Origin: Empedobacter falsenii
Lineage (GTDB): Bacteria > Bacteroidota > Bacteroidia > Flavobacteriales > Weeksellaceae
Assembly (NCBI RefSeq): GCF_013488205.1
Contig: NZ_CP040908.1
Location: forward strand, 1,961,876-2,025,875
Direction of reading: 5' to 3'
Length of the DNA: 64,000 nt
Positions 7,692 through 28,503 of this stretch are shown piece after piece. Made by a program: the position numbers and the translations under genes. Position 1 is the stretch's first letter. Each line of letters begins with the position of its first letter. Below the pieces are notes generated by a model that did no database searches, was not told where the DNA came from, and saw only the letters and a list, made by a program, of their open reading frames with translations.

Positions 7692-8453
7692 TTATCTATT
7701 CATCCAATCCATCCAACTATTAATCTGCGTTTTGCTGATAAAAATAGCTTGTTCAGTTTCTGATTTTGGTTGAAGATGAATTTCAATTTTTTGACTTGAA
7801 TGTTTTATTATTTCAGTAATTGCATCAATGTGAACAATAAACTTTCGATTGATTTTGAAGAAAATAGTCTCATCCAATTTATTTATAATATCCTTTATTG
7901 TGTCATCATAAATATAGGTTTGATCATCTTTCGTTTTTATAAAAAGATGTTTTCCCGAAGCAAAAAAATAAGCAATCTCGTGTTCTTCTACCGAACGTAA
8001 TTTGTTTCCGTTAGTTACCAAAAAACGATGCATAATCTCGGACGGAGAATTTTCTAAAACAGCAATAGATTGTAATGTTGGCGAAATATCAAAACTTGTA
8101 CGAATTGTTTTAAATTTTTGCAAAGCAATATGCAACTCCTCTACTTCAAAGGGTTTCAGAATATAATCAATCGTAAAATGCTTGAAAACTTTCATCGCAT
8201 ATTCATCATAAGCAGTGATAAAAATAATTGGCGTTAGAATCTCAACTTCCTGAAAAATCTCGAAACTTTTCCCATCACCCAAATGAATATCCATGAAGAT
8301 TAAATCAACCGAATTCTCTCTAAAAAACTCCGTTGCTTGCTTTGTTGAACGCAAAATTGTAATCGAAGAAACAGCAACAATAGATTGCTCCTCTAACAGA
8401 TTTTTTAGATAAGTAACTGCCAATAATTCGTCCTCTACAATTGCAATTTTCAT
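7692..8453 (-). CDS. LytTR-type response regulator
   Basis: 253 residues. The receiver domain (1-120) shows the acidic pocket (E7, D8), the phospho-acceptor Asp55 (LIFMDIHLGDG), Thr80 and Lys100 (ILKPF). The C-terminal LytTR DNA-binding domain (about 140-250) has the FLVTNGNKL start and a FFKINRKFIVHID segment typical of LytTR proteins, which bind pairs of direct repeats about one helical turn-multiple apart. It lies at the end of the same minus-strand block as a LytS-type kinase, a metalloprotease and SusC/SusD, and is the likely partner of that kinase (inference from context). It appears to have its own promoter downstream of the SusD terminator. Confidence 0.9.
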   Translation of the reverse strand: MKIAIVEDELLAVTYLKNLLEEQSIVAVSSITILRSTKQATEFFRENSVDLIFMDIHLGDGKSFEIFQEVEILTPIIFITAYDEYAMKVFKHFTIDYILKPFEVEELHIALQKFKTIRTSFDISPTLQSIAVLENSPSEIMHRFLVTNGNKLRSVEEHEIAYFFASGKHLFIKTKDDQTYIYDDTIKDIINKLDETIFFKINRKFIVHIDAITEIIKHSSQKIEIHLQPKSETEQAIFISKTQINSWMDWMNR

Positions 8454-8458
8454 GAATG

Positions 8459-8466
8459 CAAAAGTA
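8459..8466 (-). promoter_or_regulatory. -7 box for the response regulator gene
   Basis: On the minus strand this reads TACTTTTG, a match to TAnnTTTG, 5 bases upstream of the ATG. The very short leader would be unusual, so part of the expression may instead come from read-through of the SusC/SusD transcript. Confidence 0.35.
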
Positions 8467-8467
8467 T

Positions 8468-8502
8468 AAAAAAAACCGTCTAAATGATGAATAAAGACGG
8501 TC
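8468..8502 (-). terminator. Terminator after SusD
   Basis: On the minus strand, ACCGTCT is followed by a ~13-base loop, AGACGGT and a run of eight or more T. It separates SusD from the response regulator. Confidence 0.65.
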
Positions 8503-8510
8503 TAAAAATG

Positions 8511-9830
8511 TTATAAATGAGGATTATTGAGCTTAGCTGCTTGTGGAATTTCTATTGTATAACGAACATCATTTTCTTGTAAAATATATTCTTTACCTGA
8601 AATTTGATGTATAATTTGTTTTTGATTTGCTCGACGTAAATCGTACCAACGCTGTCCTTCCAAAGCAAATTCTCTGAAACGTTCATCTAAAATAAACTTC
8701 ATCAATTCAGTAGAATTCATCGCAGAAATTTCAGTTTGTAATTTTGCAAAACCAGTTGTTGTATAACGATTTTGTAAAACCGAAAACAAAGTTGCTTTTG
8801 CTTGATCTATCTTGTTTAATTTCAAATATGACTCAGCTTTGATAAAATATAATTCAGCCACACGGAAAGACGTTTTGAACTCTGAATTTCCACCTTTAAT
8901 CACTTTATATTTTGAACCACTTTTCTCAAAATAAAGTGAAAAACGTAAATCATTTTGAGTATCATAACTGCTTAATAATTCTGGCGAGACATACGCCATA
9001 TATTGTACAGCGGGATTCAATGTATTGTCTAAAGCTAAAATAGATTCGGCAGATGTGTAGTGATTTGGAACTTGTTTTGTTGTGTTCAAATTTACTAAAT
9101 CACCTTTGATTTTTAGTGTTGAATCAGAAAAATCAATCGCTTTTTGCCATTCATTTTTATACAACGCGATTCTTGCTTCTAAAGCATTTAGAGCTACATT
9201 TGAGAATCTATAGTTTAATCCAGCTAATTCCTGATCCATTTTCATCAACTCTGTTGCTTGTGCTAAATCAGACTCAATATGATTATAAACTTCTTGAACA
9301 GATGATGGCTTAAGCGTTGCTTCTAAATCTACTTTTAAATTTAAAGGAACACCTTTGTCTGTACTTGCTGTTGCCGAATTGTATGGTTTTCCGTATAAAT
9401 TCACCAAATCAAAATACGCATACGCACGTAACGCATAAGCTTCTGCTAATAATTGATCTTTTTCAGCAGAATTTTCCATTGTTTTTGGTCCTTCATTGAT
9501 GATTTGATTGGCATAAAAAATCACTGTATAAAAACTAACCCAAGGAAATTGAATTGAGATTTGATCCGGATTTGTATCCTTCCATTGTGCAATTTCACGG
9601 TATGAAATAAAGTCATTTGAATATTCATTCAATGTAACATCATCCGTGCGTAAAGCTGTCAACGACTTGTGTGTTGGATATTTTGAATAAGCATTTGTTA
9701 ATACCATTCGATAATCTTCTACCGTTTTTGGAATCACTTTTCCATCTGGTTCAATATCCAAATAATTGTCACAACTAACTGCTGTAAAGCTAACTGCAAC
9801 TATGCTTAATAATAAAAATATTTTTTTCAT
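8511..9830 (-). CDS. SusD/RagB-family outer-membrane lipoprotein
   Basis: 439 residues with a lipoprotein signal (MKKIFLLLSIVAVSFTAVSC, Cys20 as lipidated residue) followed by the D-N-Y-L-D-I-E-P opening common to SusD proteins. Internal features include ALRAYAYFDLVNLYGKPY (TPR-like helices that contact SusC) and, at the C-terminus, DERFREFALEGQRWYDLRR, the family's diagnostic block. SusD proteins form the lid of a SusC transporter and capture the ligand at the cell surface. It is 12 bases downstream of SusC. At 439 residues it is small compared with glycan-binding SusD proteins (500-600). RagB-type peptide-binding lids are known, and the adjacent metalloprotease makes a peptide ligand more likely than a glycan. 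Confidence 0.92.
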   Translation of the reverse strand: MKKIFLLLSIVAVSFTAVSCDNYLDIEPDGKVIPKTVEDYRMVLTNAYSKYPTHKSLTALRTDDVTLNEYSNDFISYREIAQWKDTNPDQISIQFPWVSFYTVIFYANQIINEGPKTMENSAEKDQLLAEAYALRAYAYFDLVNLYGKPYNSATASTDKGVPLNLKVDLEATLKPSSVQEVYNHIESDLAQATELMKMDQELAGLNYRFSNVALNALEARIALYKNEWQKAIDFSDSTLKIKGDLVNLNTTKQVPNHYTSAESILALDNTLNPAVQYMAYVSPELLSSYDTQNDLRFSLYFEKSGSKYKVIKGGNSEFKTSFRVAELYFIKAESYLKLNKIDQAKATLFSVLQNRYTTTGFAKLQTEISAMNSTELMKFILDERFREFALEGQRWYDLRRANQKQIIHQISGKEYILQENDVRYTIEIPQAAKLNNPHL

Positions 9831-9842
9831 TTGATTTAAAAT

Positions 9843-12800
9843 TTAGAAAGAAACATTAAGTCCTACTGTTACAGATTTTGCAATTGGTTGTGCATAAATA
9901 TTTCCATAAGTTTCTGGATCAAAATAACCTTTGTATCCATTACTAAATACAAATAAATTACGTCCTTCTAAACTAAAACGAGCACTTTTGAAACCAACAA
10001 CCTCAGCATATTTGTTTGGTAAAGTATAACCAAGACGAATGCTACTGATTCGCATATAACTAATTTCTTTCGCCCAAATGTCTAATAAATTGTACGCATT
10101 TGCATTGTTTCCTGCAAACCATTTGTTCGCCATCCAGCTATCGTTATCGCCTTTAATTGGACTTGTAATTCCTGGAAGTGTAGAACCTGCCTCGAAAATA
10201 TCTTGTGTATAATTACGACCTGGATCCAATTCCATTCCACGATAAGAAGGCGTTTTCATTACCGTTTGTTTTAAATTGAACGCTGCAGAAATCGTTAAAT
10301 CAAAATTGTGAATTTTGAAATTATTGATAATACCTCCTGTAAATTTAGGATCGCGATCTCCGATGTATGTAAATAATTTACGTTTTTCTTCGCTTGTTAA
10401 TTTGGAATCAACAAATTCTCCTGGTAAAAAATCTTCGTATAAATCATATAAAGCAAAGAATTCTTTTGCTGATACTTTTTCATCTCCTTTCCAAAACATT
10501 GGATTTCCGTATTCATCAAATCCAGCTGTTTTTAAAGCAAAAATTGCATTTACAGGTAAACCTTCGCGAGATGGAATTAAACTATTTTCACGTTCTTGCT
10601 CTTTAAGAACTTTACTCTTATTGTGCGCAAAATTAATTGTTGTCGACCATTTAAAGTTTTTCTTATCAATGTTGCGTGTTGTTAAAGCAATCTCAAAACC
10701 TTTGTTTGTCAACTCTCCCCAGTTCACCATTGTATACTCAAAACCTGTTTCTAATGGCGTTTCGCGCATACTAATCATATCTGTTCCTTTACGATTGTAA
10801 ACATCAACGGCAAGGTTGATACGATTTTTGAAAAGACCTAAATCTAATCCAACATTTGTATTCGTTGTTTTTTCCCAACGCAACAAATCATTCGGTAAAT
10901 TAATCGCATTGATAATATCTTCTTTATTACCTGGCAAAATTGTTGCATCGTTATATTCTCCAATAAAGAAAGGAGAAGTATTACGATCAATATTTCCTTG
11001 TAAACCATAAGAAGCGCGTAAACGAAGATTCGAAATAAAATCAACATTCTCCATAAACGATTCTTTCGAAACTAACCAAGAAGCAGAAACTGCCCAAATT
11101 GGTAAGTATTTATATTTTTTATTAACTCCGAATAAATTTGTACCATCATAACGAACACTACCAAAAACTGTATATTTTCTGTCTAATGTATACGAAGCTG
11201 TTGCAAATGTAGATACATAAGCATTCTCATCCGTAGGCATTTCTCTGTACGTTTCGTAACGTTTGTCAGCTGCAGAACTTGAATTTGGGAAAACGATTGG
11301 CGTTCCTGTTTTAGTTATTTTATTGTAACCAAAAGCACGCGTTAAAGTCGTTTCGTTTTGAGTATGACGAATTTCTGTTCCAGCCATCAAGTCAATTTCG
11401 TGACGATTGTTAATCGTTGTACTATATGTACCTTGAAGCTTCCAGTTATATTGAAAAAATTCGTTGTCCCAATTTTGTTTAACTCCTCCGTCTGGTAAGA
11501 AATACAAATATTGTCCAGATTTATAATAACGCGTTCCTTCTTTCATTTTACGCGTAAAATAAGTTTCTTGTTCTGCGTATTTTTCTGTTTTGTTACTATC
11601 GTACTGAATTCCGAATTGAGATGTTAATTTTAAACCTTTTGCTAATTGATAATTAAGATCAATAATACCTTTTAACGAACGGTTTTTTAATGTATAATTT
11701 GTATTTTCTCTTTCTTCGATAAAATTGAAAGGAACAGAACGATCTTCAAATCCATCAATATCGTTGTCATAACGATAAGAACCATCTGCATTAAATGGAG
11801 ATAAATATGGATTCGCATTTCGTGAATAATTAATTGGATTGATAGACGCATCTGCATCTGTTACAAAAGATTTTTTATCACTTGAAGTTGCAAAAATAGA
11901 AATCCCTACATCTAATTTATCGTTAAGTTTATAATTGTTTTTTAAAGTAAGATTATAACGTTCAAAACCAGTTCCGATCGTAGTTCCTTGCTCATCATAA
12001 TATCCTAATGAGAAGTAATAATCAGAACGATCATTTCCTCCAGATATACTCAAACCATATTGTGTATTAATTGCATTACGATACAATAATTTCCCCCAAT
12101 CGGTTGTATTATTTCGTAAAGAATTAATTTGATTTTGCGTGATAAGATCTAAAGAATTAAATCCTCCATTTCGTAAAGCATTTAATTGACCATTCTTTTG
12201 TAAAATTCGCATGACTTCGCCTTTATCAGTACGATACGTTAAATCATCTCGACTAGCAAGCATTAATTCAAGATCAACTTTCTGTGAAGCATTTAATAAA
12301 TTTAAACGACCAAAATCAGGACGAGCCGTTACAAATGTATTCGCAGAAAAATTAACCGTCATAGCGCCTTTTTTACCACGTTTTGTTGTAATAGAAATTA
12401 CACCATTTGCAGCTCTTGCTCCATAAATAGCCGTTGCAGCAGCATCTTTAAGGATTGTAATATCTTCGATATCGTTTGGATTTAATCCAGCGATAGAAAA
12501 GTTTTGTAATTGATCGATGTTATCTTTATCGCTAAAGTTTGGCACATCATTTCCTTCTAATGGCAAACCATCAATTACCCATAACGGATCTTGAGGGCCA
12601 GAAAGAGAAGCTGTTCCACGAATTCTAATTTTACTAGGAGAACCAGGCGAACCAGTTTCTGTAGAAACAGCTACACCAGCAATTTGTCCGCTTAACAATT
12701 GATCAACACTAGCAACACCAGCTTGTTGAATATCATCCATTTTTACAGTTGATACTGCCGATGTTAGTTTACGTTTTTCGATTTTTTGATAACCTGTAAC

Positions 12801-13184
12801 AACAACTTCTTTCAGATCATTATTTTCTGGAAGAACTTCACCTGAAGTTGATTTTAAGCTCACATGATATGTTGCTAAATCGGTAGAAAGTTCAACTAAT
12901 TTAGAATCATAACCTAAATAACTAATCAATACAGATTTTGTACCAGCTGGAACCTCTAATGAAAAGAAACCATCTTCATCTGTAACAGTACCAACCGTTA
13001 CACTTTCTATAATTCCTTTTTGATCTGTTTTTGTCGAAATTGATTGAGCTTCAATTTTAACAGACGCACCAGCAATTCCAACCAACGATTTTTCGTCTTG
13101 AACCGAACCTGTAATCACTCTCTTTTCTTGAGAAAACGCAATACTTGCCGCAAAAAGTGGCAAAAGAATGAGTGTCTTTTTCAT
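9843..13184 (-). CDS. SusC/RagA-family TonB-dependent transporter
   Basis: 1113 residues. Order: signal peptide (MKKTLILLPLFAASIAFSQ), a carboxypeptidase-regulatory-like beta-sandwich (about 22-110), the EVVVTGYQ segment (about 126-133) before the plug, a plug domain with IRGTASLSG...PLWVIDG and NPNDIEDITILKDAAATAIY (the SusC signature, followed by YGARAANGVI), then a 22-stranded barrel ending in an aromatic Phe (GLNVSF). It imports large ligands with SusD across the outer membrane, powered by TonB. Odd: the N-terminal sandwich looks longer than usual, with an internal insertion around residues 52-65. It sits 9 bases after the metalloprotease stop codon, so all three are one operon. Confidence 0.93.
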   Translation of the reverse strand: MKKTLILLPLFAASIAFSQEKRVITGSVQDEKSLVGIAGASVKIEAQSISTKTDQKGIIESVTVGTVTDEDGFFSLEVPAGTKSVLISYLGYDSKLVELSTDLATYHVSLKSTSGEVLPENNDLKEVVVTGYQKIEKRKLTSAVSTVKMDDIQQAGVASVDQLLSGQIAGVAVSTETGSPGSPSKIRIRGTASLSGPQDPLWVIDGLPLEGNDVPNFSDKDNIDQLQNFSIAGLNPNDIEDITILKDAAATAIYGARAANGVISITTKRGKKGAMTVNFSANTFVTARPDFGRLNLLNASQKVDLELMLASRDDLTYRTDKGEVMRILQKNGQLNALRNGGFNSLDLITQNQINSLRNNTTDWGKLLYRNAINTQYGLSISGGNDRSDYYFSLGYYDEQGTTIGTGFERYNLTLKNNYKLNDKLDVGISIFATSSDKKSFVTDADASINPINYSRNANPYLSPFNADGSYRYDNDIDGFEDRSVPFNFIEERENTNYTLKNRSLKGIIDLNYQLAKGLKLTSQFGIQYDSNKTEKYAEQETYFTRKMKEGTRYYKSGQYLYFLPDGGVKQNWDNEFFQYNWKLQGTYSTTINNRHEIDLMAGTEIRHTQNETTLTRAFGYNKITKTGTPIVFPNSSSAADKRYETYREMPTDENAYVSTFATASYTLDRKYTVFGSVRYDGTNLFGVNKKYKYLPIWAVSASWLVSKESFMENVDFISNLRLRASYGLQGNIDRNTSPFFIGEYNDATILPGNKEDIINAINLPNDLLRWEKTTNTNVGLDLGLFKNRINLAVDVYNRKGTDMISMRETPLETGFEYTMVNWGELTNKGFEIALTTRNIDKKNFKWSTTINFAHNKSKVLKEQERENSLIPSREGLPVNAIFALKTAGFDEYGNPMFWKGDEKVSAKEFFALYDLYEDFLPGEFVDSKLTSEEKRKLFTYIGDRDPKFTGGIINNFKIHNFDLTISAAFNLKQTVMKTPSYRGMELDPGRNYTQDIFEAGSTLPGITSPIKGDNDSWMANKWFAGNNANAYNLLDIWAKEISYMRISSIRLGYTLPNKYAEVVGFKSARFSLEGRNLFVFSNGYKGYFDPETYGNIYAQPIAKSVTVGLNVSF

Positions 13185-13193
13185 TTCTATATC

Positions 13194-15773
13194 TTACTTT
13201 AAAGCTTCTTTAATACGGATGATTAAATCAGCATAATGCGCTTTTGTAGACGCATCTCCATTATTCTTTTTCTTGTTTAACAAAGTCAACACGCGTTGTA
13301 ATTCTGCTCTTTTATAAGTTGTCACTTCCGACACTCTTTTCATAGAAGAATAGTTAATGTTACGCGCCATTTTTTCTTCGTCTAAATAATTACAGATAGT
13401 TGGTACTTGTAGGTTTTGGTCAATTGTAAGTCCCGCAACAGTTGTTTTCTCAAATAATTTGTTTGTCGAAACAATCAATGCATCAACATAATTTTTTTGA
13501 GTCATTTTTTCAAGAATTGTTAAGTTTGATTTTTTATCAAAAGCTGCACTTCTTACTTGATCAAATAAATTTTCAACTGTATATATTTTTTCTTTTGAAT
13601 TTAATTCTTGGTGTTTCAATTCATTTTCTAACATGCGCAATAAACGATCGTCGGTAAATAAATTATAAATCAATCCATATTGCATTTCTCTCGCTAATGT
13701 GTACGGCGTTTGCTCATATGGTCCCATTGGCGAATTTTTGATTGCATACGTTTTATCTAAAATATCATTAAAGAATAACCATTTTGGTAATTGAATTACG
13801 TTTTCGTTTAAATAATTAACCGCTTTACGTTGCATATCTGCAGGAACCGGTTCGTATGCTTTTTTATCAATTCCGAAATATGTATTATTCAAATAAATTC
13901 CACCAATATTTGCTAAAACATGATTAGAATATAAATCCCATTGTCCGATAGTTTGGTAATATAATTTCCCTGTATTGATATAGCTTTTTCCATCTTCATA
14001 CGTCCATTTCAAAATATTTTCTGAGACACGTTTTAGATTTTTCATACCATATTCACTTGCCAAAATAGCATCATCACCTAAATCTTCAGATTGAGAACGC
14101 GGATCAATTGTACTTAAATAGCTTTGTTGTTCTCCATAGAAGTACATTGGATCATCTTCGTGCTTTTCAATCATTTTACGAAGCAAAGCTTTCTCTGTTT
14201 CTTGATTCGGGAACCAACGATATCCCCACTCGATTGCATATTTATCATACAAACCGATTTTTGGAGTAATCGCTGTAACACCATCTTCTGGCTGTGCTAC
14301 ATAATTGTAACGCGCATAATCCATAATAGATGGCGCAGTTCCACCCATTTTATCCGTAAATTCTTTCGAACGTAAAGATTCTACTGGATAAGAAAAAGAA
14401 GCGCCCATATTATGTTTCAGACCAAATGTATGACCAACTTCGTGAGATGATACAAATCGAATTGCTTCTCCCATATGTTCGTCACTAAATTTATTTCCTC
14501 TTGCTTTTGGATCAATTGGACCAGTTTGAATACGCATCCAATCATGCAAAGAAGTCATTACATTGTGCCACCAAATAATATCAGCTTCTAAAATTTCACC
14601 ACTACGCGGATCAACAACAGAAGGTCCCATTGCATTCGATTTTGGAGAAGCTGCATACGTAATTACCGAATAACGTACATCGTCAATATCAAAATCTTTG
14701 TCATCAGCAGTTGGTTCTTTTGCAATAATTGCATTTTTGAAACCAGCTTGTTCAAAAGCAACTTGCCAATCGTGTACACCTGCAATAATTTTTTGACGCC
14801 ATTGTTTTGGTGTTGAAGGATCGATATAATAAATAATTGGTTTTTTAGGTTCTACTAATTCACCTTTTAGATATTTTTCTTTATCCTCATCTTTTGGTTC
14901 AAAACGCCATTTTGTAATAAAGCGTTGATCTTCCATTTTGTGTTGAGCATCATTAAAAAACCAATGTTTTTCTGTGAAATATCCTACACGATTATCTGCT
15001 AACCTAGGTTGCATAGGAGTCGTCGAAAGTAAAACAATATTACTTGTAACACCCAAGGTAACAGCCAAATCTACCCCTCCTTCATTTACACTTGTCGTTA
15101 ACTGAGACTTAACCACAATGTTCTCTGGAAACGTTTTCACATTTTCCACATATGATAGATTTGCCTTTACCGAACCTCCTAAACCTATGTTCGTTAATAC
15201 ATCATTAAAACTTTTTTGATTTCCATCAAAAATTTTGTTCACTTTAATCGCAACTGCTGTCGAATCGTTGTTTTGAGCTTCTATATCAAAAACCTCAATA
15301 ATCGATTCTGAAAAATTATCTTTTACAGAAGCTGTAATTGCGTCATTTTTAGGCGAAGAAACTTGTGGGACAATTGTTTTAACCCACACTTTTTTAGCCA
15401 CTTTATCATGATAAAAAGAAATTACTTTGTTTTCGTAATTCATTCCTTTATTCAAGCCCGCTTCATTCACTTCCATCGGAACTTGAGACAATTTATTCAC
15501 AACCAAAAATTGACGACCAAATAAACTATCTGGAATCTCGAAATAGATATCAGTTTTTACTTGAATGGTATTAAACAAACCTTTCTTGTAGCTTCCTTTC
15601 TTGATTAATTCATCTATTTTTTTAACTTTCGTTACAGTAGAATCCTTTTTCTCTGTTATATCTTTTTCAGCTTTTTTATCCTCTTTTTTTTGTCCGTAAA
15701 CAACAGCCGAAGACATTGCCAAACCAAGATATAGTGCTAATTTATAATTCTTTCTTTCCTTATTATGACTCAT
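13194..15773 (-). CDS. Secreted zinc metalloprotease (DUF5117/DUF4953 type)
   Basis: 859 residues with an N-terminal hydrophobic export signal (LALYLGLAMSSAVVYG). The DUF5118/DUF5117 part covers about residues 45-300. The catalytic motif HEVGHTFGLKH (444-454) is the metzincin HExxHxxGxxH zinc site, followed by a possible Met-turn (SIMDYARYNY, residues ~484-493). The C-terminal half is the DUF4953 region. Proteins of this type are widespread in Bacteroidota and often sit beside SusC/SusD pairs. Here it is the first gene of the operon, 9 bases before SusC, which suggests that it cuts proteins into fragments for the transporter. The start ATG at 15773 is 80 bases from the kinase stop codon. Confidence 0.88.
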   Translation of the reverse strand: MSHNKERKNYKLALYLGLAMSSAVVYGQKKEDKKAEKDITEKKDSTVTKVKKIDELIKKGSYKKGLFNTIQVKTDIYFEIPDSLFGRQFLVVNKLSQVPMEVNEAGLNKGMNYENKVISFYHDKVAKKVWVKTIVPQVSSPKNDAITASVKDNFSESIIEVFDIEAQNNDSTAVAIKVNKIFDGNQKSFNDVLTNIGLGGSVKANLSYVENVKTFPENIVVKSQLTTSVNEGGVDLAVTLGVTSNIVLLSTTPMQPRLADNRVGYFTEKHWFFNDAQHKMEDQRFITKWRFEPKDEDKEKYLKGELVEPKKPIIYYIDPSTPKQWRQKIIAGVHDWQVAFEQAGFKNAIIAKEPTADDKDFDIDDVRYSVITYAASPKSNAMGPSVVDPRSGEILEADIIWWHNVMTSLHDWMRIQTGPIDPKARGNKFSDEHMGEAIRFVSSHEVGHTFGLKHNMGASFSYPVESLRSKEFTDKMGGTAPSIMDYARYNYVAQPEDGVTAITPKIGLYDKYAIEWGYRWFPNQETEKALLRKMIEKHEDDPMYFYGEQQSYLSTIDPRSQSEDLGDDAILASEYGMKNLKRVSENILKWTYEDGKSYINTGKLYYQTIGQWDLYSNHVLANIGGIYLNNTYFGIDKKAYEPVPADMQRKAVNYLNENVIQLPKWLFFNDILDKTYAIKNSPMGPYEQTPYTLAREMQYGLIYNLFTDDRLLRMLENELKHQELNSKEKIYTVENLFDQVRSAAFDKKSNLTILEKMTQKNYVDALIVSTNKLFEKTTVAGLTIDQNLQVPTICNYLDEEKMARNINYSSMKRVSEVTTYKRAELQRVLTLLNKKKNNGDASTKAHYADLIIRIKEALK

Positions 15774-15803
15774 TCGAACATTAAATTATCATTAATTATG
15801 GCA

Positions 15804-15811
15804 TAAACTTA
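15804..15811 (-). promoter_or_regulatory. Possible -7 box of the metalloprotease-SusC-SusD operon
   Basis: On the minus strand this reads TAAGTTTA, one base off TAnnTTTG, about 31 bases upstream of the start codon. The direct repeats at 15833-15873 end 21 bases upstream of it, the position expected for an activator. Confidence 0.35.
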
Positions 15812-15832
15812 AGCGCAGTTTTCTTATAATAA

Positions 15833-15873
15833 TAGTTTTTTGGAGTGAGTGGTTAGTTTTTTGGAGTGAATGG
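15833..15873 (-). repeat. Two tandem 20-bp direct repeats with 21-bp period, candidate LytTR operator
   Basis: TAGTTTTTTGGAGTGAGTGG (15833-15852) and TAGTTTTTTGGAGTGAATGG (15854-15873) differ at one base. On the minus strand they contain ACCACTCA (15846-15853) and TCCATTCA (15867-15874), 21 bp apart. LytTR regulators bind paired direct repeats with this period; the E. coli BtsR/YehT motif is ACC[G/A]CT[C/T]A twice with a 13-base spacer, and the proximal copy fits it exactly. The distal copy lies inside the last codons of the kinase gene. The repeats are 60-100 bases upstream of the metalloprotease start. Confidence 0.55.
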
Positions 15874-17478
15874 ATATTTTGATTCGATATAAGGTAAAAA
15901 ACAAATAAAATCTTCATTTTCTACTTTTGTTGAGAAATTATCAACTTGATAAAAATGATAGATTTTTTGTAAATAGTTTAAACCAAATTTCTCATTTTCC
16001 GTTGCTTTATTTTTTTTCTGAAAAGTATTTTTGACGATAATCAAATCAGATTTTACAACAATATTTATAGTCAAAGGTTGATCAATTGTAGCAATATTAT
16101 GTTTTATTGCGTTTTCTACAACAATCTGTAATGCTAAATATGGAATGTTTTTTTCTAAGCTTTTCGAATCTTCAATTTGTAAATCAAAAATTAATTCTTC
16201 CGAAAATCTACTTTTATGCAAATCCATGTATTGTGCAATAAAATCTAATTCTTTTTTTACAAGCACAACATTTTCCTTTGGCGGAACAATAAGATATCGG
16301 TAAATTTTAGAAAGATTCATCGTGAATTTCTGTGCATTCTCTTTGTTCAAACCAATTAACATATAAAGAGAATTCAAGGAATTGAATAAAAAATGTGGAT
16401 TAATTTGATTCTTTAATTGTTGTAATTGCGTTAGAGTATTCGCGTTTTTAATCTTTTCGTTTTCAATTAACAACCTATTTTTTTCTTCGATTACAAACGC
16501 TTTTTCCTTGTATGTTTTAGATGTTATTATATTGAATAACAAAAAGATAATTATAATTAAAAAAACAGTCCCTAAGAAAATAAAACCTATATAAAATTTA
16601 GTTCGTTCTACATTTTCATCAATGATATAACTCAAATGATTCACGACAATATATCCATCAAAATTTTTGGTGTGTAAAGGTTTTATAAAACGTTTGATAT
16701 CCGTATCTTTTATAAATTCGGACGAAGCATCATTCAACGTATATAAATCTTGTGAAAAATTAGAATTAATTGTGCTCGTTATCGTATCGTTTGGCTGGAT
16801 ATCTGTAAAATCGAAAACATTTTTCCCAATAAATTTTTCATCAGGATGCGTAATACAAATTCCATCTTTATTGAAAACATACATATAATTGGACGAAGTT
16901 GCATCAACTGTCGTAAAAAAATTATACAAATCAAACAGATTAATCGTCGAACCGTAATACATATTTTGTCCATCAGACAACTTAATAGAATCGTAATTTA
17001 CCCAATACAACGTGTCTTTATAATCCAATAAAAAATTATCAATCTGTTGATTTTTTGTAGTATATATCGATTGAAATTCTTTAATATTTGGTTGATTGAT
17101 AGCTTTTGAAAGGATTGATTCATCAGGAAAATAATTTGTTTCTGGAGAATGAATAGAAAACCAATCATGGCGAATTAACTTTCGATTTGAATTTAATTCA
17201 TTCAAAACCAAAAAATGATCTGCTACATTTTTTTCATTTGTCTTTTTAACAACTTTTTTTAAAACTTCTTGATATTCTTCGATGTTTTTAAACTCAAATT
17301 CAACTGCTTCATATTTCCTCAAAAAACTTTTTTTGACAAACTCATCATTATTTTTTTGACTTTCTTTATTAATCAAAAAACTCAATATAACAAGAGCAAA
17401 CACAGCAATAACACTTACAATAAGCGCTATAACATAAATGGATTTATTGGATAAATGGACTCGAAATCGAAAAGACAA
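15853..17478 (-). CDS. LytS-type sensor histidine kinase with extracytoplasmic Cache-like domain
   Basis: 541 residues: transmembrane helix 1 (about 14-35), an extracytoplasmic sensor of ~255 residues with a Cache-like end (MYVFNKDGICITHPDEKFIG at ~198-217), transmembrane helix 2 (about 294-317), then a His_kinase domain. The phospho-acceptor is His362 in NQINPHFLFNSLNS, and the N-box is ENAIKH (455-460). The start codon is TTG (17478), since no in-frame ATG precedes the first membrane helix and the -7 box candidate lies 15 bases upstream. It probably phosphorylates the LytTR regulator at the other end of the block, sensing an external ligand. Confidence 0.9.
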   Translation of the reverse strand: MSFRFRVHLSNKSIYVIALIVSVIAVFALVILSFLINKESQKNNDEFVKKSFLRKYEAVEFEFKNIEEYQEVLKKVVKKTNEKNVADHFLVLNELNSNRKLIRHDWFSIHSPETNYFPDESILSKAINQPNIKEFQSIYTTKNQQIDNFLLDYKDTLYWVNYDSIKLSDGQNMYYGSTINLFDLYNFFTTVDATSSNYMYVFNKDGICITHPDEKFIGKNVFDFTDIQPNDTITSTINSNFSQDLYTLNDASSEFIKDTDIKRFIKPLHTKNFDGYIVVNHLSYIIDENVERTKFYIGFIFLGTVFLIIIIFLLFNIITSKTYKEKAFVIEEKNRLLIENEKIKNANTLTQLQQLKNQINPHFLFNSLNSLYMLIGLNKENAQKFTMNLSKIYRYLIVPPKENVVLVKKELDFIAQYMDLHKSRFSEELIFDLQIEDSKSLEKNIPYLALQIVVENAIKHNIATIDQPLTINIVVKSDLIIVKNTFQKKNKATENEKFGLNYLQKIYHFYQVDNFSTKVENEDFICFLPYIESKYPFTPKN

Positions 17479-17492
17479 ACTAATTTTTTTTG

Positions 17493-17500
17493 CAAAACTA
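17493..17500 (-). promoter_or_regulatory. -7 box for the histidine kinase gene
   Basis: On the minus strand it reads TAGTTTTG (fits TAnnTTTG), about 15 bases upstream of the TTG start. No clear -33 box. Confidence 0.4.
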
Positions 17501-17583
17501 AGGGAAGCTTTTTAATCTAAAAAATAAGAGAACATTTATCATAAAATGATAATTTTCAAATAATTGACAATATTATATAAACT

Positions 17584-17608
17584 AAAAATCTCCCTTTTGG
17601 GAGATTTA
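17584..17608 (-). terminator. Terminator of the SnoaL-like lipoprotein gene
   Basis: The stem AAATCTCCC/GGGAGATTT with a 4-base loop is followed on the minus strand by T residues, 20 bases after the stop codon. Confidence 0.75.
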
Positions 17609-17627
17609 TTTATCTTTTAAGCGTCAT

Positions 17628-18119
17628 TTAGAACATTGGATGTGGATTGGCAGATTCTTTCGGAACATCTTGATGCACATCCCAATGTTCAACAATTTTA
17701 CCATCTTTTAGTCTAAAAATATCAATTGTTGATTTTAGCGAACCATCTGGATTTATATTTTTGATATGCAAGAAAACCAAATCTCCTTCTGCTGCAATAT
17801 GTTGTACATCAATTTTGGTTTTTGGAGCTCCTTTGAACCACCCTTCTGCAGCTTTTTTGAATGCTTCAGAACCATCTGCTACATTAGGATTGTGCTGAAT
17901 ATATTCTGGAGCAATATATTTATCAACCGCCGTTAAATCCTTATCACCAAACATTTGTTGGTAAAAATCAAGAACGATTTTTTTGTTTGATTCAATTTCA
18001 GAATTTGAATTAACTTTCGCAGATTCAGTTTTAGGTTCAGTATTCTTCGTGCAACTCATCATTTGAATAGAAAGCAAAACTGCTGAACAAAATAATAAAG
18101 GCGTGATTATTTTTTTCAT
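17628..18119 (-). CDS. SnoaL-like (NTF2-fold) lipoprotein
   Basis: 163 residues with a lipoprotein signal (lipidation Cys23 in IQMMSC). After a Ser/Asn-rich linker comes an NTF2-like fold of the SnoaL/predicted-ester-cyclase group: an opening helix KKIVLDFYQQMFGDKD, then YIQHNP, WDVHQDVP and FRLKDGKIVEHW, the usual signature of this group. It should be anchored to a membrane facing the periplasm. The enzymatic role, if any, is unknown. A perfect 25-bp palindrome lies directly upstream of its ATG. Confidence 0.8.
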   Translation of the reverse strand: MKKIITPLLFCSAVLLSIQMMSCTKNTEPKTESAKVNSNSEIESNKKIVLDFYQQMFGDKDLTAVDKYIAPEYIQHNPNVADGSEAFKKAAEGWFKGAPKTKIDVQHIAAEGDLVFLHIKNINPDGSLKSTIDIFRLKDGKIVEHWDVHQDVPKESANPHPMF

Positions 18120-18120
18120 T

Positions 18121-18145
18121 ATAATAGATTTTTAAAATCTATTAT
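18121..18145 (-). repeat. Perfect 25-bp palindrome in front of the SnoaL-like gene
   Basis: ATAATAGATTTT, one central T, then AAAATCTATTAT. It ends 1 base upstream of the ATG of the lipoprotein and 20 bases after the stop codon of the YopX-like gene. It could be an operator or a hairpin hiding the start codon. Confidence 0.6.
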
Positions 18146-18165
18146 CAAAAATCTATCCGAATAAG

Positions 18166-18558
18166 TTATTTAGTCTTTTCTTTCTTCGTAAATAAATGAG
18201 AAATCACTTCGAGTTTATCATGATCGAACAAACACAAACCTTCAACATAGAAAGGTGTAAAATGAAAACTTTGTTGATCTACGATTCCAAATTCTTTCAG
18301 TTTTGGTTCGTAAACGACAAAACCTGTACGTAAAAATGGCTTTTTAGAAACTTTATATAACACAATATCATTGGTAAATAATCGTCGATTTCGTTTATCC
18401 AATATATCTATTCCAATATCTATGGTATCAAATTGCAAAGCATTTTCGTGCCAAGAAAATTCATTATAACCTTTAAAATAGGTTACTCCATCAATCTCCT
18501 TCGCAAAACCTTCTACTTTATTTTTGTTTCGTAATCGATAATATCCGATCGTTTTCAT
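18166..18558 (-). CDS. YopX-like protein
   Basis: About 130 residues starting at the ATG at 18558 (MKTIGYYRLRNKNKVEG). A TTG five codons upstream is less likely. The middle segment LDKRNRRLFTNDIVLYK resembles the D-K-N-G-K-E-I-x-E-G-D-I-V core of YopX proteins, small beta-barrel proteins mostly found in phages and integrated elements. No other phage genes are near, so it is an orphan or a domesticated copy. Function unknown. Confidence 0.5.
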   Translation of the reverse strand: MKTIGYYRLRNKNKVEGFAKEIDGVTYFKGYNEFSWHENALQFDTIDIGIDILDKRNRRLFTNDIVLYKVSKKPFLRTGFVVYEPKLKEFGIVDQQSFHFTPFYVEGLCLFDHDKLEVISHLFTKKEKTK

Positions 18559-18647
18559 CTGACAAATTTGCAATAAAAAAAATTAAAATAGAAACGAACA
18601 ATATTAAAATAGATGATTAAATTTATCATCCGAAAACAACTAACACA

Positions 18648-23938: not shown

Positions 23939-25345
23939 TTATTGCCATCCACCTCCAACAGCACGATACAATTCGACCATTGATGATAAAGATGATAATT
24001 TCGCATCAACAACATTCAATTCAGCATTTAACCCATTGTCTCTTGCTGTAATTACTTCTAAATAGTTTGCCATACCGTAGTTTAACAATTCTTCAGAATA
24101 GGTAATTGCTTGATTGTATAATTGATATTCTTTTTGTTTATATTCAGCTTTCTTCGTTGCTGCATTGTATGTGTATAACGCATCAGAAACCTCTTTACTT
24201 GCATTTAAGATTTTGCTTTTGTAATTAATCAAAGCATTTTCTTGATTTGCTAAAGCGACTTCTTTTTGCGTACGCAATTTACGTTGTTGTAATAAAGGTT
24301 GAGTTAAGCTACCGATAACCGTCGCAAATAAAGATTGCGCACTAAACAATTTATCGATATCAATTCCTTGTACACCACCAGTTGCAGTAATAGAAAGAGA
24401 AGGATAAAAACTTGCATTCGCAACGTTAACATTCTCAAAAGCGTTCATCAATCCAAACTCTGCAGCTTTGATATCAGGACGATTTTCTAATAATTGAGCT
24501 GGAACACCAACAGATAATTTTTCGTCAATTTTTTGAGAAGCTAAGTTTGTACGATTAATAGATTGAGGATTTGTTCCTAACAAAATACTCATCACATTTT
24601 CGTTCATCTTAATTCCATTTTCAACGTCAACCAATAATGATTTCACATTGAACAATTGCGCTTCCGTTTGGTTAACTGCAACTTCTGTAACATTACCAGC
24701 TTCTTTCAAAGCTTTCGTTGTTTCTAAACTTTGCTCGCGGTTGATTAAAGTTTTATCTAAAATTCTTTTTTGCTCATCTAAAGCCAATAAGTTGTAATAC
24801 GTATTTGCAATAGAAGCAACAATTTGTGTTTTAACCGCTTTGTGCGCTTCTACAGTTTGCAAATAAGTTGCAGCTGATGCACGTTGATTACTTCTAATTT
24901 TACCCCAAATATCTGCTTCCCAACTTAAGTTCCCTGAAACTTCGTATTGACTTTGTGCACGTTTTGACATCAATGCACCAAACTGAGTGTTACGAGAGTT
25001 TTCTGTAAACGTATATTTTGGCCCAACAGATAAAGTTGGTAAATAACCTGCTTTACCTTGTTTAGCATACGCTTCAGCGACTGCAATATTTTGCAGTGCT
25101 GAACGTATATCTAAATTATTTTGTAAACCTTGATTAATCAAAGCTTGTAATTGAGTGTCTGTAAAAATTTGTTTCCAAGAAACAGTTGCAACACTTGCAC
25201 TGTCTTTTGCAATAACATCTGTTCTGAAATTTGCTTCATTTACAACAGCTTCAGGACGATGATAATCTTTTGCTACGAAACAAGACTGAACAGCAAACAA
25301 TCCAGCTGCGATTAAAGTAATATTAAATATTCTGTACTTTTTCAT
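23939..25345 (-). CDS. Outer-membrane efflux lipoprotein (TolC/NodT type)
   Basis: 468 residues with lipoprotein signal MKKYRIFNITLIAAGLFAVQSC (Cys22). NodT-type order: an N-terminal linker with DYHRPE, then two repeats of the TolC fold. LENRPDIKAAEFGLMNAFENV is the family's consensus loop, and FYPSLSITATGGVQG marks the start of the second repeat's beta strands. It forms the outer-membrane exit duct for the adjacent RND pump. It is the last gene of a four-gene operon, 2 bases after the pump gene. Confidence 0.92.
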   Translation of the reverse strand: MKKYRIFNITLIAAGLFAVQSCFVAKDYHRPEAVVNEANFRTDVIAKDSASVATVSWKQIFTDTQLQALINQGLQNNLDIRSALQNIAVAEAYAKQGKAGYLPTLSVGPKYTFTENSRNTQFGALMSKRAQSQYEVSGNLSWEADIWGKIRSNQRASAATYLQTVEAHKAVKTQIVASIANTYYNLLALDEQKRILDKTLINREQSLETTKALKEAGNVTEVAVNQTEAQLFNVKSLLVDVENGIKMNENVMSILLGTNPQSINRTNLASQKIDEKLSVGVPAQLLENRPDIKAAEFGLMNAFENVNVANASFYPSLSITATGGVQGIDIDKLFSAQSLFATVIGSLTQPLLQQRKLRTQKEVALANQENALINYKSKILNASKEVSDALYTYNAATKKAEYKQKEYQLYNQAITYSEELLNYGMANYLEVITARDNGLNAELNVVDAKLSSLSSMVELYRAVGGGWQ

Positions 25346-25347
25346 TT

Positions 25348-28300
25348 TTAGATTGAATTATTATGTTCAATTTCTTCTTGTGGACGATCAAATTTAATTG
25401 GTTTAACTTTTTCTTGTAATGTTTGGAAAACAACAAACAATACTGGAATAACAAATAAACCTAAAATTGTACCTACTAATAAACCAAATGCTGCTCCTGT
25501 TGCTACAGAACGGTTACCAGCAGATGATACACCTGTTGCAAATACTAATGGCATTAATCCTAAAATGAAGGCAAAAGATGTCATCAAAATTGGACGTAAA
25601 CGAGCTTTCGCTCCATCTATAGCTGCCTGAATAATTGACATTCCGTGTACACGTCTTTGTAATGCAAACTCTACAATCAAAATGGCATTTTTGGCGAGTA
25701 AACCAACCAACATGATTAAGGCAATTTGGAAATAAATATTATTTTCTAATCCAGCTAACCATTGAGATAAATATGCACCCATCATACCACAAGGAACAGA
25801 TAATAATACTGCGAATGGTAAAACATAAGATTCATATTGTGCAGATAAAATAAAGTACACGAATACGATACATAAAGCAAAAATCATTGCTGTTTGAGAA
25901 CCTGAATTAATCTCTTCACGAGTAAGACCTGTAAAGTCAGTACTATAAGAAGTAGATAATGTTTGTTCAGAAACTTGATTAATTGCTGTAATTGCATCAC
26001 CTGTAGAAAATCCTGGTTTTACAGCTCCTGTAATATTAGCTGATGTAAATAAGTTGAAACGGTTAACAGAGTTAGGACCATATACACGTTTTAAAGTCAC
26101 AAATTGTGAAACTGGTGTCATTGAACCTGCATCCGTTTTCACGAACATTTTATTTAAACTTGTTTCATTGATACGATCATCTGGCGAAGCTTGAATGTAC
26201 ACACGGTATTGTTTACCAAAACGTGTAAAGTCAGCTGCATATAATCCTCCAATATATCCTTGTAAAGTTGAGAAAATAGAACTTACTGAAACACCAGATT
26301 GTTTTGCTCTTTCAATATTAACATCGATTTCGTATTGAGGGAAACCTGTATTTAAAGAAGTTTGAGCATACATAATTTCTGGACGTTGCATTAATGCACC
26401 AATATATTCCTTTGCAACTTTATCAAAATCAGCAATGTCTCCACCTGTTTTATCTAATAATTTCAATTCGAAACCAGAAGACATACCAAAACCTGGAATT
26501 GATGGTGGTTGGAAGAAAATCATTTGAGCATCAGGAATTTGAGCTGCAGCACCAAATAATTGTCCAATGATTGATTGTACTGATAAAGCATCTGTTGTAC
26601 GTTCTTCGAATGGTTTCAATTTAATGAACATCATACCATAATTAGAACCAGCTCCAGAAATAATAGAGTTACCTGAGATAATTGTTGCTTTATCTAATCC
26701 AGGAATTTTTTCAATTTTTTTCTGGAATTCTTTTTCAACTTCATACACACGGTCCATAGAAGCACCCGCTGGTAATTCGATATTACCAATAATAAATCCG
26801 TTATCTTCAGTTGGCACGAAACCTGTTGGCATCATTTTTCCAATACCCCAAATTCCTACTCCACTAAGAATAATTAATAAGAATGAAATCCATTTGTGTT
26901 TAATTAAAAATTTGAATGAATTACCATATTTATGTGTCATACGATCAAATGAAGCATTGAAAGCATCAAAGAATCGTTGAATAAAGTTACGTTTTTGCTC
27001 TCCTTCTTGATGTGGTTTTAAGAATAAAGCACACAATGCTGGAGATAATGTCAAGGCATTTAATGCCGAAATTAAAATGGCAACAATTAAAGTAATACCA
27101 AATTGTTTGTAGAATACTCCAGTAGGTCCTGAGATAAATGTTACTGGTACGAACACCGCACACATTACTAATGTAATTGAGATAATCGCTCCAGAAATTT
27201 CATCCATCGCATTTTTCGTTGCATCCATAGGAGCTTCGTGATGAGACTCCATTCGAGCATGCACGGCTTCCACAACAACAATGGCATCATCCACCACAAT
27301 ACCAATGGCGAGTACTAAGGCAAATAACGTTAATAAGTTTAACGAGAATCCTGCCAAATTAAGGAAAAAGAATGTACCAATAATAGACACTGGTACCGCA
27401 ATCAATGGTACTAATGTAGAACGGAAATCTTGTAAGAAAATATATACAACAATAAATACTAAGATAAACGCCTCTATCATTGTGTGAACAACTTTAGAAA
27501 TAGACGCATCTAAGAATGTATTTGTATCCATTAAGATAGTGTAAGAAACTCCTTCTGGTAATAATTTAGAAGCTTTTTCTAACTCAGCTCTTAAGTTTAC
27601 AATAATTTCTTGTGCATTAGATCCTGGCGTTTGATAAACAGCAAATACAGCAGAAGGATCTCCATCCATTGCAGAACGTCCTGCATAAGATTGAGCACCA
27701 AATTCTACATTCGCTACATCTTTTAATCTAAGAACCTGTCCGTTTGGTAAAGATTTAATAACAATATTACGATATTGATCTTCTGTCTTGTATCGTCCAG
27801 AATATGTGATTGTATATTGGAATGATTGTCCAGAGTTTTCCCCTAACGAACCAGCAGCAGCTTCAAGAGATTCTTGAGATAAAGCTGCAGAAACTTCAGA
27901 AGGAACTAAACCATAACTAGCCATACGAGAAGGATCTAACCAAATACGCATAGAATAAGTCATCGCACCAAACACAGTTGCATCCCCTACACCGTTTACA
28001 CGTTTTAAGGCTGGAATAATGTTGATGTTCAAATAATTCTGAAGATAAATCTCATCATATTTAGGGTTTGTTGAACTAAACGAAGCAAACATCAATGCTG
28101 ATGTCTGTTGTTTTTGTGTCACAACCCCAGAACGAGTTACCTCCGAAGGTAATAATGGTGTAGCACGTGCCACACGGTTTTGTACGTTTACCTGTGCGAT
28201 ATCTCCATCTACACCTGGTTTAAATACAACATCGATAGAAGCAGAACCGTTATTAGAGGCAGTAGAAGAAATATAATCCATTCCTTCAACCCCGTTCACC

Positions 28301-28503
28301 TGTTCCTCTATCGGAATAATTACAGACTCCATTACTGTCTTTGCATTTGCTCCAGGATACGAAGCAGAAATTTTTACAGTAGAGGGTGCAATATCTGGAT
28401 ATTGTGTTACTGGAAGCGATATAAGCCCCAGTATCCCCAATATCAATATAAGGATAGAAATTACCGTAGATAGTACGGGTCTTTCAATAAACTTTTTTAA
28501 CAT
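25348..28503 (-). CDS. RND efflux pump, AcrB/HAE1 type
   Basis: 1051 residues with two halves of six transmembrane helices plus two large periplasmic loops each. N-terminus MLKKFIERPVLSTVISILIL, then the periplasmic domain starting PVTQYPDIAPSTVKISASYPG. The proton-relay pair is in helix 4 (GIVVDDAIVVVEAVHARME, two Asp). The second half carries GAYLSQWLAGLENNIYFQIA and NAILIVEFALQRR. It exports hydrophobic and amphiphilic compounds (antibiotics, detergents, dyes) from the periplasm, driven by protons. It follows the adaptor gene by 13 bases in the same operon. Confidence 0.95.
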   Translation of the reverse strand: MLKKFIERPVLSTVISILILILGILGLISLPVTQYPDIAPSTVKISASYPGANAKTVMESVIIPIEEQVNGVEGMDYISSTASNNGSASIDVVFKPGVDGDIAQVNVQNRVARATPLLPSEVTRSGVVTQKQQTSALMFASFSSTNPKYDEIYLQNYLNINIIPALKRVNGVGDATVFGAMTYSMRIWLDPSRMASYGLVPSEVSAALSQESLEAAAGSLGENSGQSFQYTITYSGRYKTEDQYRNIVIKSLPNGQVLRLKDVANVEFGAQSYAGRSAMDGDPSAVFAVYQTPGSNAQEIIVNLRAELEKASKLLPEGVSYTILMDTNTFLDASISKVVHTMIEAFILVFIVVYIFLQDFRSTLVPLIAVPVSIIGTFFFLNLAGFSLNLLTLFALVLAIGIVVDDAIVVVEAVHARMESHHEAPMDATKNAMDEISGAIISITLVMCAVFVPVTFISGPTGVFYKQFGITLIVAILISALNALTLSPALCALFLKPHQEGEQKRNFIQRFFDAFNASFDRMTHKYGNSFKFLIKHKWISFLLIILSGVGIWGIGKMMPTGFVPTEDNGFIIGNIELPAGASMDRVYEVEKEFQKKIEKIPGLDKATIISGNSIISGAGSNYGMMFIKLKPFEERTTDALSVQSIIGQLFGAAAQIPDAQMIFFQPPSIPGFGMSSGFELKLLDKTGGDIADFDKVAKEYIGALMQRPEIMYAQTSLNTGFPQYEIDVNIERAKQSGVSVSSIFSTLQGYIGGLYAADFTRFGKQYRVYIQASPDDRINETSLNKMFVKTDAGSMTPVSQFVTLKRVYGPNSVNRFNLFTSANITGAVKPGFSTGDAITAINQVSEQTLSTSYSTDFTGLTREEINSGSQTAMIFALCIVFVYFILSAQYESYVLPFAVLLSVPCGMMGAYLSQWLAGLENNIYFQIALIMLVGLLAKNAILIVEFALQRRVHGMSIIQAAIDGAKARLRPILMTSFAFILGLMPLVFATGVSSAGNRSVATGAAFGLLVGTILGLFVIPVLFVVFQTLQEKVKPIKFDRPQEEIEHNNSI

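What the first reader, a model, noticed from the sequence alone, without database searches (positions are those of the whole stretch)
7692..17478. Metalloprotease-SusC-SusD operon enclosed by a LytS/LytTR sensor-regulator pair
Five minus-strand genes form one block: LytS-type kinase, DUF5117/DUF4953 zinc metalloprotease (HExxHxxGxxH), SusC, SusD, LytTR regulator. Seen in sequence: order, close gaps in the operon (9 and 12 bases) and a terminator after SusD. Known: RagAB (a SusCD pair) imports peptides, and most SusCD loci are regulated by ECF sigma/anti-sigma, hybrid sensors or SusR rather than by LytS/LytTR. Inferred: the secreted protease makes peptides, SusCD imports them, and the kinase's Cache-like sensor reports their presence. 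A peptide-utilisation locus under LytSR control would be unusual.
Basis: partly seen in the sequence, partly recalled or inferred. Interest (0 to 1): 0.72.

Follow-up and report, generated by a model that had tools for sequence, protein, structure and literature searches.

The report
Sensor-controlled protease and peptide-import gene block
A conserved five-gene block in Empedobacter and relatives pairs a two-component sensor with an outer-membrane importer and a protease, and carries one dedicated DNA switch site; the importer's nearest solved relative is a Bacteroides transporter seen bound to a ubiquitin-like toxin.

Summary
The window (Empedobacter by its relatives; nearest named locus E. 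falsenii) holds kinase–DUF5117/DUF4953 metalloprotease–SusC–SusD–LytTR regulator on the minus strand. The block is conserved: 78 of the 80 best protease loci in named genomes (Empedobacter, Chishuiella, Faecalibacter, Chryseobacterium, Flavobacterium, Myroides and unclassified Bacteroidota) keep the order. At up to one mismatch it occurs once per genome and only in genomes with the block (13 of 99). It has the layout of known LytTR operators and resembles E. coli BtsR's site. LytSR control of protease–SusCD is thus strongly supported by comparison, not by experiment. The importer is closest not to RagAB but to ButCD, solved in complex with the B. fragilis ubiquitin-like toxin BfUbb. The protease–SusC–SusD trio also occurs without the regulators, in the same family and in another family of the class. 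The protease shows no type IX secretion tail or lipobox, so it is more likely periplasmic than secreted. Substrate and kinase ligand are unproven. New variant of a known kind.

The parts
15853..17478 (-). LytS-class (PF06580) membrane histidine kinase with periplasmic double-Cache-like sensor; TTG start
15843..15873 (-). LytTR-type operator: CCATTCACTC-N11-CCACTCACTC, 21-bp period; overlaps the last kinase codons in this genome
15804..15811 (-). -7-like promoter element TAAGTTTA, 31 nt after the operator
   Evidence: position read
13194..15773 (-). DUF5118/DUF5117/DUF4953 Met-zincin metalloprotease, Sec-type signal by eye, no T9SS tail match
9843..13184 (-). SusC/RagA-family TonB-dependent transporter, closest solved relative ButC (8ypt/8ypu)
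8511..9830 (-). SusD-family surface lipoprotein, closest solved relative ButD (8ypt chain A)
8462..8510 (-). stretch with an intrinsic-terminator-like hairpin after SusD
7692..8453 (-). LytTR response regulator, own TAnnTTTG box upstream

Best explanation
A self-contained, single-target uptake module for polypeptides. The kinase samples the periplasm through its Cache domain and phosphorylates the LytTR regulator, which binds the 21-bp-period direct repeat between kinase and protease. It then activates a promoter that has a -7-like box but mostly no -33 box, switching on the protease-SusC-SusD operon. The SusCD pair, of the ButCD type, imports peptides or small proteins, and the Met-zincin cuts them in the periplasm, so the kinase could sense its own product (positive feedback). 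Supported by comparison: the gene unit, the operator, the operator-promoter spacing and one operator per genome. Inferred: activation rather than repression, phosphotransfer between these two proteins, binding of this regulator to this repeat, peptide/protein cargo, periplasmic cleavage, and product sensing.
For: Order kept in 12 of 12 relatives with a full-length kinase and 78 of 80 named loci. Operator score >=18/20 in 79 of 80 upstream regions (the exception, L113, is a 4.7-kb fragment with 143-167 bases before the protease) and nowhere else in the 1.74 Mb of those loci on either strand; of periods 12-30, only 21 is common. In 64 of 79 it begins after the kinase stop, so it is not a coding artefact. 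With up to one mismatch it occurs in 13 of 99 genomes, once each, exactly those with kinase and protease, with 0 control hits. One exact site in the own genome; 8 more at 3 mismatches against 10 for the control. A TAnnTTTG-like box (at least 5 of 6 positions) lies 31 nt (59) or 32 nt (20) after the operator in 79 of 79; 41 of 79 are perfect. TTTG at the -33 place in 3 of 79, TTG in 23. In G297, where protease and SusCD are split, each unit has its own YTCACTC-N14-YTCACTC repeat, a pair not found away from the operator in the 79 loci. Almost all LytTR sites are direct or inverse repeats of 9-11 nt with 11-13-nt spacers, and the E. coli YehT/BtsR oligonucleotide holds ACCGCTTA-N13-ACCACTCA (PMC4847170). 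Cargo: SusC and SusD match BfUbb-bound ButCD at E 5e-284 and 7e-98, far above the next structures; protease sequence lies directly upstream of SusC in 17 of 17 loci of family f25.
Against: No experiment. The sensor resembles amino-acid-binding Cache domains only as a fold (Z 12.1-14.4, 7-14% identity), the model is modest (pLDDT 73, pTM 0.48), and the arginine of the amino-acid motif (recalled) is not conserved. ButCD's normal cargo is not known to me; binding a toxin need not reveal it. The trio occurs without LytSR in other lineages. In L137 the regulator is not within 5.3 kb after SusD; a 54% match lies about 17 kb away on what is, by length, the same contig. By a stricter promoter pattern (TAnnYTT 20-45 nt after the operator) 13 of 79 loci have no box, and G004 had none.
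Confidence: 0.7

Rival explanations
1. Same regulatory circuit, but the SusCD imports a non-peptide ligand (glycan, cofactor or metal complex) and the Met-zincin is an accessory, for example a maturation or shedding protease.
For: SusCD pairs are mostly known for glycans (general knowledge); the SusD model also aligns with other SusDs, several of them glycan-binding, at Z 19-29. No substrate test exists.
Against: No carbohydrate enzyme among the five genes; the protease keeps company with this SusCD type in most lineages seen (G297 has both, but apart); the closest solved pair binds a protein.
Confidence: 0.2
2. The kinase reports a general nutrient or overflow signal such as pyruvate, as BtsS does, and induces the importer when nutrients change, without sensing the importer's product.
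For: The regulator's best NCBIfam hit is BtsR, below cut-off (73 vs 246 bits); the operator is close to the BtsR site.
Against: The sensor is Cache-like, not the 5TMR_LYT domain described as characteristic of LytS-type kinases.
Confidence: 0.2
3. The regulator represses the operon and phosphorylation releases it.
For: Nothing in the sequence fixes the sign directly.
Against: The operator lies upstream of the -7-like box at fixed spacing and the -33 box is mostly missing, the usual layout for activation.
Confidence: 0.08

Closest known systems
ButCD of Bacteroides fragilis (PDB 8ypt, 8ypu; 8ypt title: BfUbb-ButCD complex)
   Same: Closest solved relative of both SusC and SusD over the mature length; related pairs in family f25 sit behind the same protease family.
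   Different: SusD is 36% identical in the structural alignment; f25 loci L170 and L171 have no LytS/LytTR and no operator; the B. fragilis locus itself was not seen; binding of a ubiquitin-like protein was not tested.
RagAB of Porphyromonas gingivalis
   Same: SusCD fold and the idea of peptide import; SusD aligns with RagB at Z 26-27, rmsd 3.5-3.6, 370-371 residues.
   Different: Much more distant in sequence (RagA E 2.9e-58 vs ButC 5.2e-284).
BtsS/BtsR and YpdA/YpdB of E. coli
   Same: LytTR regulator, direct repeat of 21-bp period with a downstream half-site identical to BtsR's, a transporter as target.
   Different: Cache sensor instead of 5TMR_LYT; the target is an outer-membrane importer operon with a protease.

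Membership tests
LytTR response regulator with LytTR operator | Receiver plus LytTR DNA-binding domain | tested here: met
   56.6 and 52.5 bits, both over cut-off
LytTR response regulator with LytTR operator | Two direct or inverse repeats of 9-11 nt separated by 11-13 nt (PMC4847170, passages) | tested here: met
   10-nt direct repeats, 11-nt spacer in 79 of 80 loci
LytTR response regulator with LytTR operator | Regulator binds the repeat | not testable with these tools
   needs EMSA or footprinting
LytS/BtsS-type kinase | PF06580 kinase domain with phospho-acceptor His | tested here: met
   H362 invariant in 12 sequences
LytS/BtsS-type kinase | 5TMR_LYT sensor domain (PMC10653868, passages) | tested here: not met
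   no such Pfam match at E 0.001; Cache instead. Works like LytS in its kinase part; not filed as a BtsS-type sensor
SusCD transporter | SusC/RagA TonB-linked protein plus SusD lipoprotein as neighbours | tested here: met
   VSC-D lipobox in SusD by eye
ButCD | Closest solved sequence match of both subunits, whole mature length | tested here: met
ButCD | Binds or imports a ubiquitin-like protein | not testable with these tools
   only the entry title of 8ypt was seen
Polysaccharide utilisation locus | Carbohydrate-active enzyme in the locus | tested here: not met
   none among the five genes by Pfam
Met-zincin metalloprotease | HExxHxxGxxH and Met-turn | tested here: met
   H444-H454 and M484 invariant in 13 sequences

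The most novel reading that the evidence does not exclude
ButCD-type SusCD pairs are dedicated importers of whole small proteins or long polypeptides across the outer membrane, which a partner periplasmic Met-zincin digests; Bacteroides ubiquitin-like toxins hijack this nutrient route, and in one clade of Flavobacteriales the route is under a dedicated Cache-LytS/LytTR switch that senses the digestion products.
Probability: 0.3. Interest if true: 0.78.

Novelty: new variant of a known kind. Interest (0 to 1): 0.55.

Why it matters
It gives a testable DNA switch, apparently with a single target operon, for a SusCD system under LytS/LytTR control. It also suggests what the normal job of the ButCD toxin receptor could be: this transporter type travels with one protease family in three of the families sampled (f1, f3, f25), so protein or peptide feeding is a direct hypothesis. 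The conserved site makes the kinase's ligand searchable with a simple reporter.

Tried and rejected
Coding origin of the repeat: rejected, it begins after the kinase stop in 64 of 79 loci. Exact BtsR-like ACCACTCA-N13-ACCACTCA: not in the window; the upstream half differs. Larger regulon: no second site at up to one mismatch in any of 99 genomes; looser sites were sought only in the own genome, at control level. Amino-acid Cache motif: W106 is invariant but the arginine is not (motif recalled), so an amino-acid ligand is not claimed. Anti-phage role: no PADLOC match at E 0.001 for protease or kinase. The protease has no strong PDB sequence relative (best E 0.0085, 4l63) and no NCBIfam match.

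Literature (8 of 10 searches used): 8YPT/8YPU, 0 papers; SusC/SusD/cryo-EM/TonB/peptide/metalloprotease since 2023, listing only; LytTR+SusC+SusD+histidine kinase, 2 papers: PMC10197871, abstract and passages, not relevant; PMC5320581, listing only; a badly chosen search swamped by 'susceptibility'; DUF5117/DUF4953/DUF5118, 0 papers; ButCD/BfUbb, 19 papers, the two 'butcd' matches unrelated by title; BtsR/LytTR sites; LytTR+SusC+Bacteroidetes and others, 25 of 141 listed, listing only. None showed a description of this block, but most subscription papers are not held. Seen as passages only: PMC5552118, PMC10653868, PMC4847170, PMC7730263, PMC5705921, PMC12853789. The ButCD paper was not seen.

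Not examined: G018 and G026, which also hold the 54-58% protease, and the 313 of 393 protease relatives that one search did not keep.

Full report
What is there. The kinase has a PF06580 phospho-acceptor domain and an N-terminal sensor region. Pfam Cache matches are weak (sCache_2 26.7 bits over a cut-off of 25; dCache_1 22.8 bits under its cut-off of 45). An AlphaFold2 model from 12 orthologs (pLDDT 73, pTM 0.48) aligns over residues about 30-298 with double-Cache ligand-binding domains (for example 7prq Z 14.4, rmsd 4.3, 240 residues; 6iov Z 14.2, rmsd 3.1, 192 residues). The protease has the DUF5118-DUF5117-DUF4953 layout, with HEVGHTFGLKH and the Met-turn methionine invariant in 13 orthologs.

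Conservation of the block. In 99 relatives (own included), full-length Cache kinases occur in the own genome and 12 others (G009 and G012 matched in two pieces), and the protease at 69-100% identity occurs in the same 13. All 12 relatives carry kinase-protease-SusC-SusD-regulator in this order (in G076 an ORF is inserted before the regulator; in G009 the kinase runs off the contig). A 13th fetched region, G003 (L044), is decayed: regulator open, SusD and kinase in pieces, no protease or SusC found. In named genomes 393 stretches encoded a relative of the protease and the 80 best were kept. 78 of 80 show the order: 77 by ORF search and L069 by tblastn. The others are L113, a 4.7-kb fragment, and L137, where no regulator lies within 5.3 kb after SusD. 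Among the 78, L075 and L134 have a split kinase frame, L083 a split SusD, and L128 an insertion before the regulator.

The operator. Between kinase and protease lies CCAYTCACTC-N11-CCAYTCACTC. It is present in 13 of 13 first loci and in 79 of 80 named loci at 18-20 of 20 positions (31 at 20, 47 at 19, 1 at 18; the scoring was derived from the first 13 and allows A/G at one position and C/T at the next). No other hit at that score lies in the 1,740,716 bases of these loci on either strand; other periods from 12 to 30 reach the score in at most 3 upstream regions. It begins after the kinase stop in 64 of 79 and overlaps the kinase end in 15, as in the window. With one mismatch allowed, 13 of 99 whole genomes have it, once each: the 13 with the block; the reversed control pattern has none. 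In the own genome a slightly shorter pattern with up to 3 mismatches gives one exact hit and 8 hits at 3 mismatches, against 10 for the control.

The promoter. A TAnnTTTG-like box (at least 5 of 6) starts 31 nt after the operator in 59 and 32 nt in 20 of 79 loci; 41 of 79 are perfect. By the stricter TAnnYTT pattern 13 of 79 lack a box 20-45 nt downstream. TTTG at the -33 place occurs in 3 of 79, TTG in a further 23. Fixed spacing with a weak -33 element fits an activator. The Bacteroidetes -7/-33 consensus is recalled. Kinase and regulator have their own TAnnTTTG just upstream of their starts, and a terminator-like hairpin separates SusD from the regulator.

Comparison with known operators. 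PMC4847170 (passages) states that almost all LytTR sites are two direct or inverse repeats of 9-11 nt separated by 11-13 nt, and prints an E. coli yjiY oligonucleotide for YehT (BtsR) that contains ACCGCTTA-N13-ACCACTCA. The window reads TCCATTCA-N13-ACCACTCA in the same register. The regulator's best NCBIfam model is BtsR, well under its cut-off. The kinase, however, lacks the 5TMR_LYT sensor that PMC10653868 (passages) calls characteristic of LytS-type kinases.

A natural rearrangement. In G297 (same order, f3), the protease stands on the other strand from regulator-kinase-SusC-SusD. Both transcription units carry a repeat that keeps YTCACTC-N14-YTCACTC but has drifted in the first three positions of the halves; neither reaches 18/20. 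This core pair was not seen away from the operator in the 79 operator-bearing loci. The regulator there is 43% identical to the window's. In the protease tree G297 lies inside the Flavobacterium group.

Age of the parts. In a phylum-wide draw of 395 genomes, 15 have this SusC type at E <= 1e-220 (about two candidates per genome were scored, so misses are possible). Of these 15, 12 (own included) have the block in order with the operator (in G340 the regulator lies about 2.6 kb beyond SusD), 1 is the split G297, and 2 (f25, another family of the same class) have protease-SusC-SusD without kinase, regulator or operator. In f25, 17 of 121 genomes have it at E <= 1e-200 and 17 of 17 have protease sequence directly before and SusD directly after; no kinase or regulator hit in the 1.5-kb flanks, and wider flanks were read only for L170 and L171. 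Same-family genomes G041, G046 and G014 have the trio without LytSR, and G015 a remnant (G041's contig ends just after SusD, so its downstream side is untested). In a 35-row protease tree, rooted at the midpoint and with long-branch warnings, the LytSR rows plus G297 form one group with moderate support (83/86) and the trio-only rows another (80/79). The simplest reading is one gain of the regulator pair around an older trio; loss elsewhere is not excluded.

What it imports. SusC finds 8ypu/8ypt at E 5.2e-284/1.7e-283 and SusD finds 8ypt at 7.4e-98; the next solved relatives are at 6.8e-72 (5t3r, BT1762-1763) and 1.7e-16 (3mcx). The 8ypt title reads 'Cryo-EM structure of BfUbb-ButCD complex' (SusD model, pLDDT 65: Z 37.7, rmsd 3.4, 401 residues, 36% identity; next Z 28.8). 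BfUbb is a secreted ubiquitin-like antibacterial protein of B. fragilis (PMC5705921, passages and start of abstract). The ButCD paper was not available to me. So the importer's closest studied relative binds a whole small protein. With a protease as usual partner and no glycan enzyme in the block, peptide or small-protein cargo is the best guess, at perhaps 60%.

Where the protease works. The N-termini of the 27 LytSR-clade proteins printed look by eye like signal peptidase I signals without a Cys at the cleavage point, and the window protein has no NCBIfam match, so no type IX tail model. No signal-peptide predictor was run.

Verdict. Observation confirmed; LytSR control strongly supported by comparative evidence; secretion of the protease and close kinship to RagAB not supported; peptide feedback plausible and untested. 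New variant of a known kind.

Noticed in passing
L044 (G003:C1:2826000-2842000): Decayed copy in a same-genus genome: regulator frame open, SusD and kinase in fragments, protease and SusC not found, no operator in that genome at up to one mismatch.
   Followed up: partly
L172 (G297:C1:152000-171000): Rearranged locus with regulator-kinase-SusC-SusD on one strand and protease on the other, each unit with its own drifted repeat.
   Followed up: yes
L153 (G061:C20:422000-437000), 9367-14976, minus strand: A second, distant DUF4953-type protease follows a different SusC-SusD pair, order SusC-SusD-protease, suggesting repeated partnership of this protease class with SusCD.
   Followed up: no
L206 12969-15540; L128 about 17245-18568: Extra DNA between SusD and the regulator in two f3/Flavobacterium loci, while the operator stays intact.
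   Followed up: no
window 23939-28503, minus strand: AcrB-type RND pump next to an outer-membrane efflux protein, outside the block.
   Followed up: partly
window 17628-18119, minus strand: SnoaL-like small protein upstream of the kinase; of the 12 relatives with the block it was seen beside it only in L033.
   Followed up: partly
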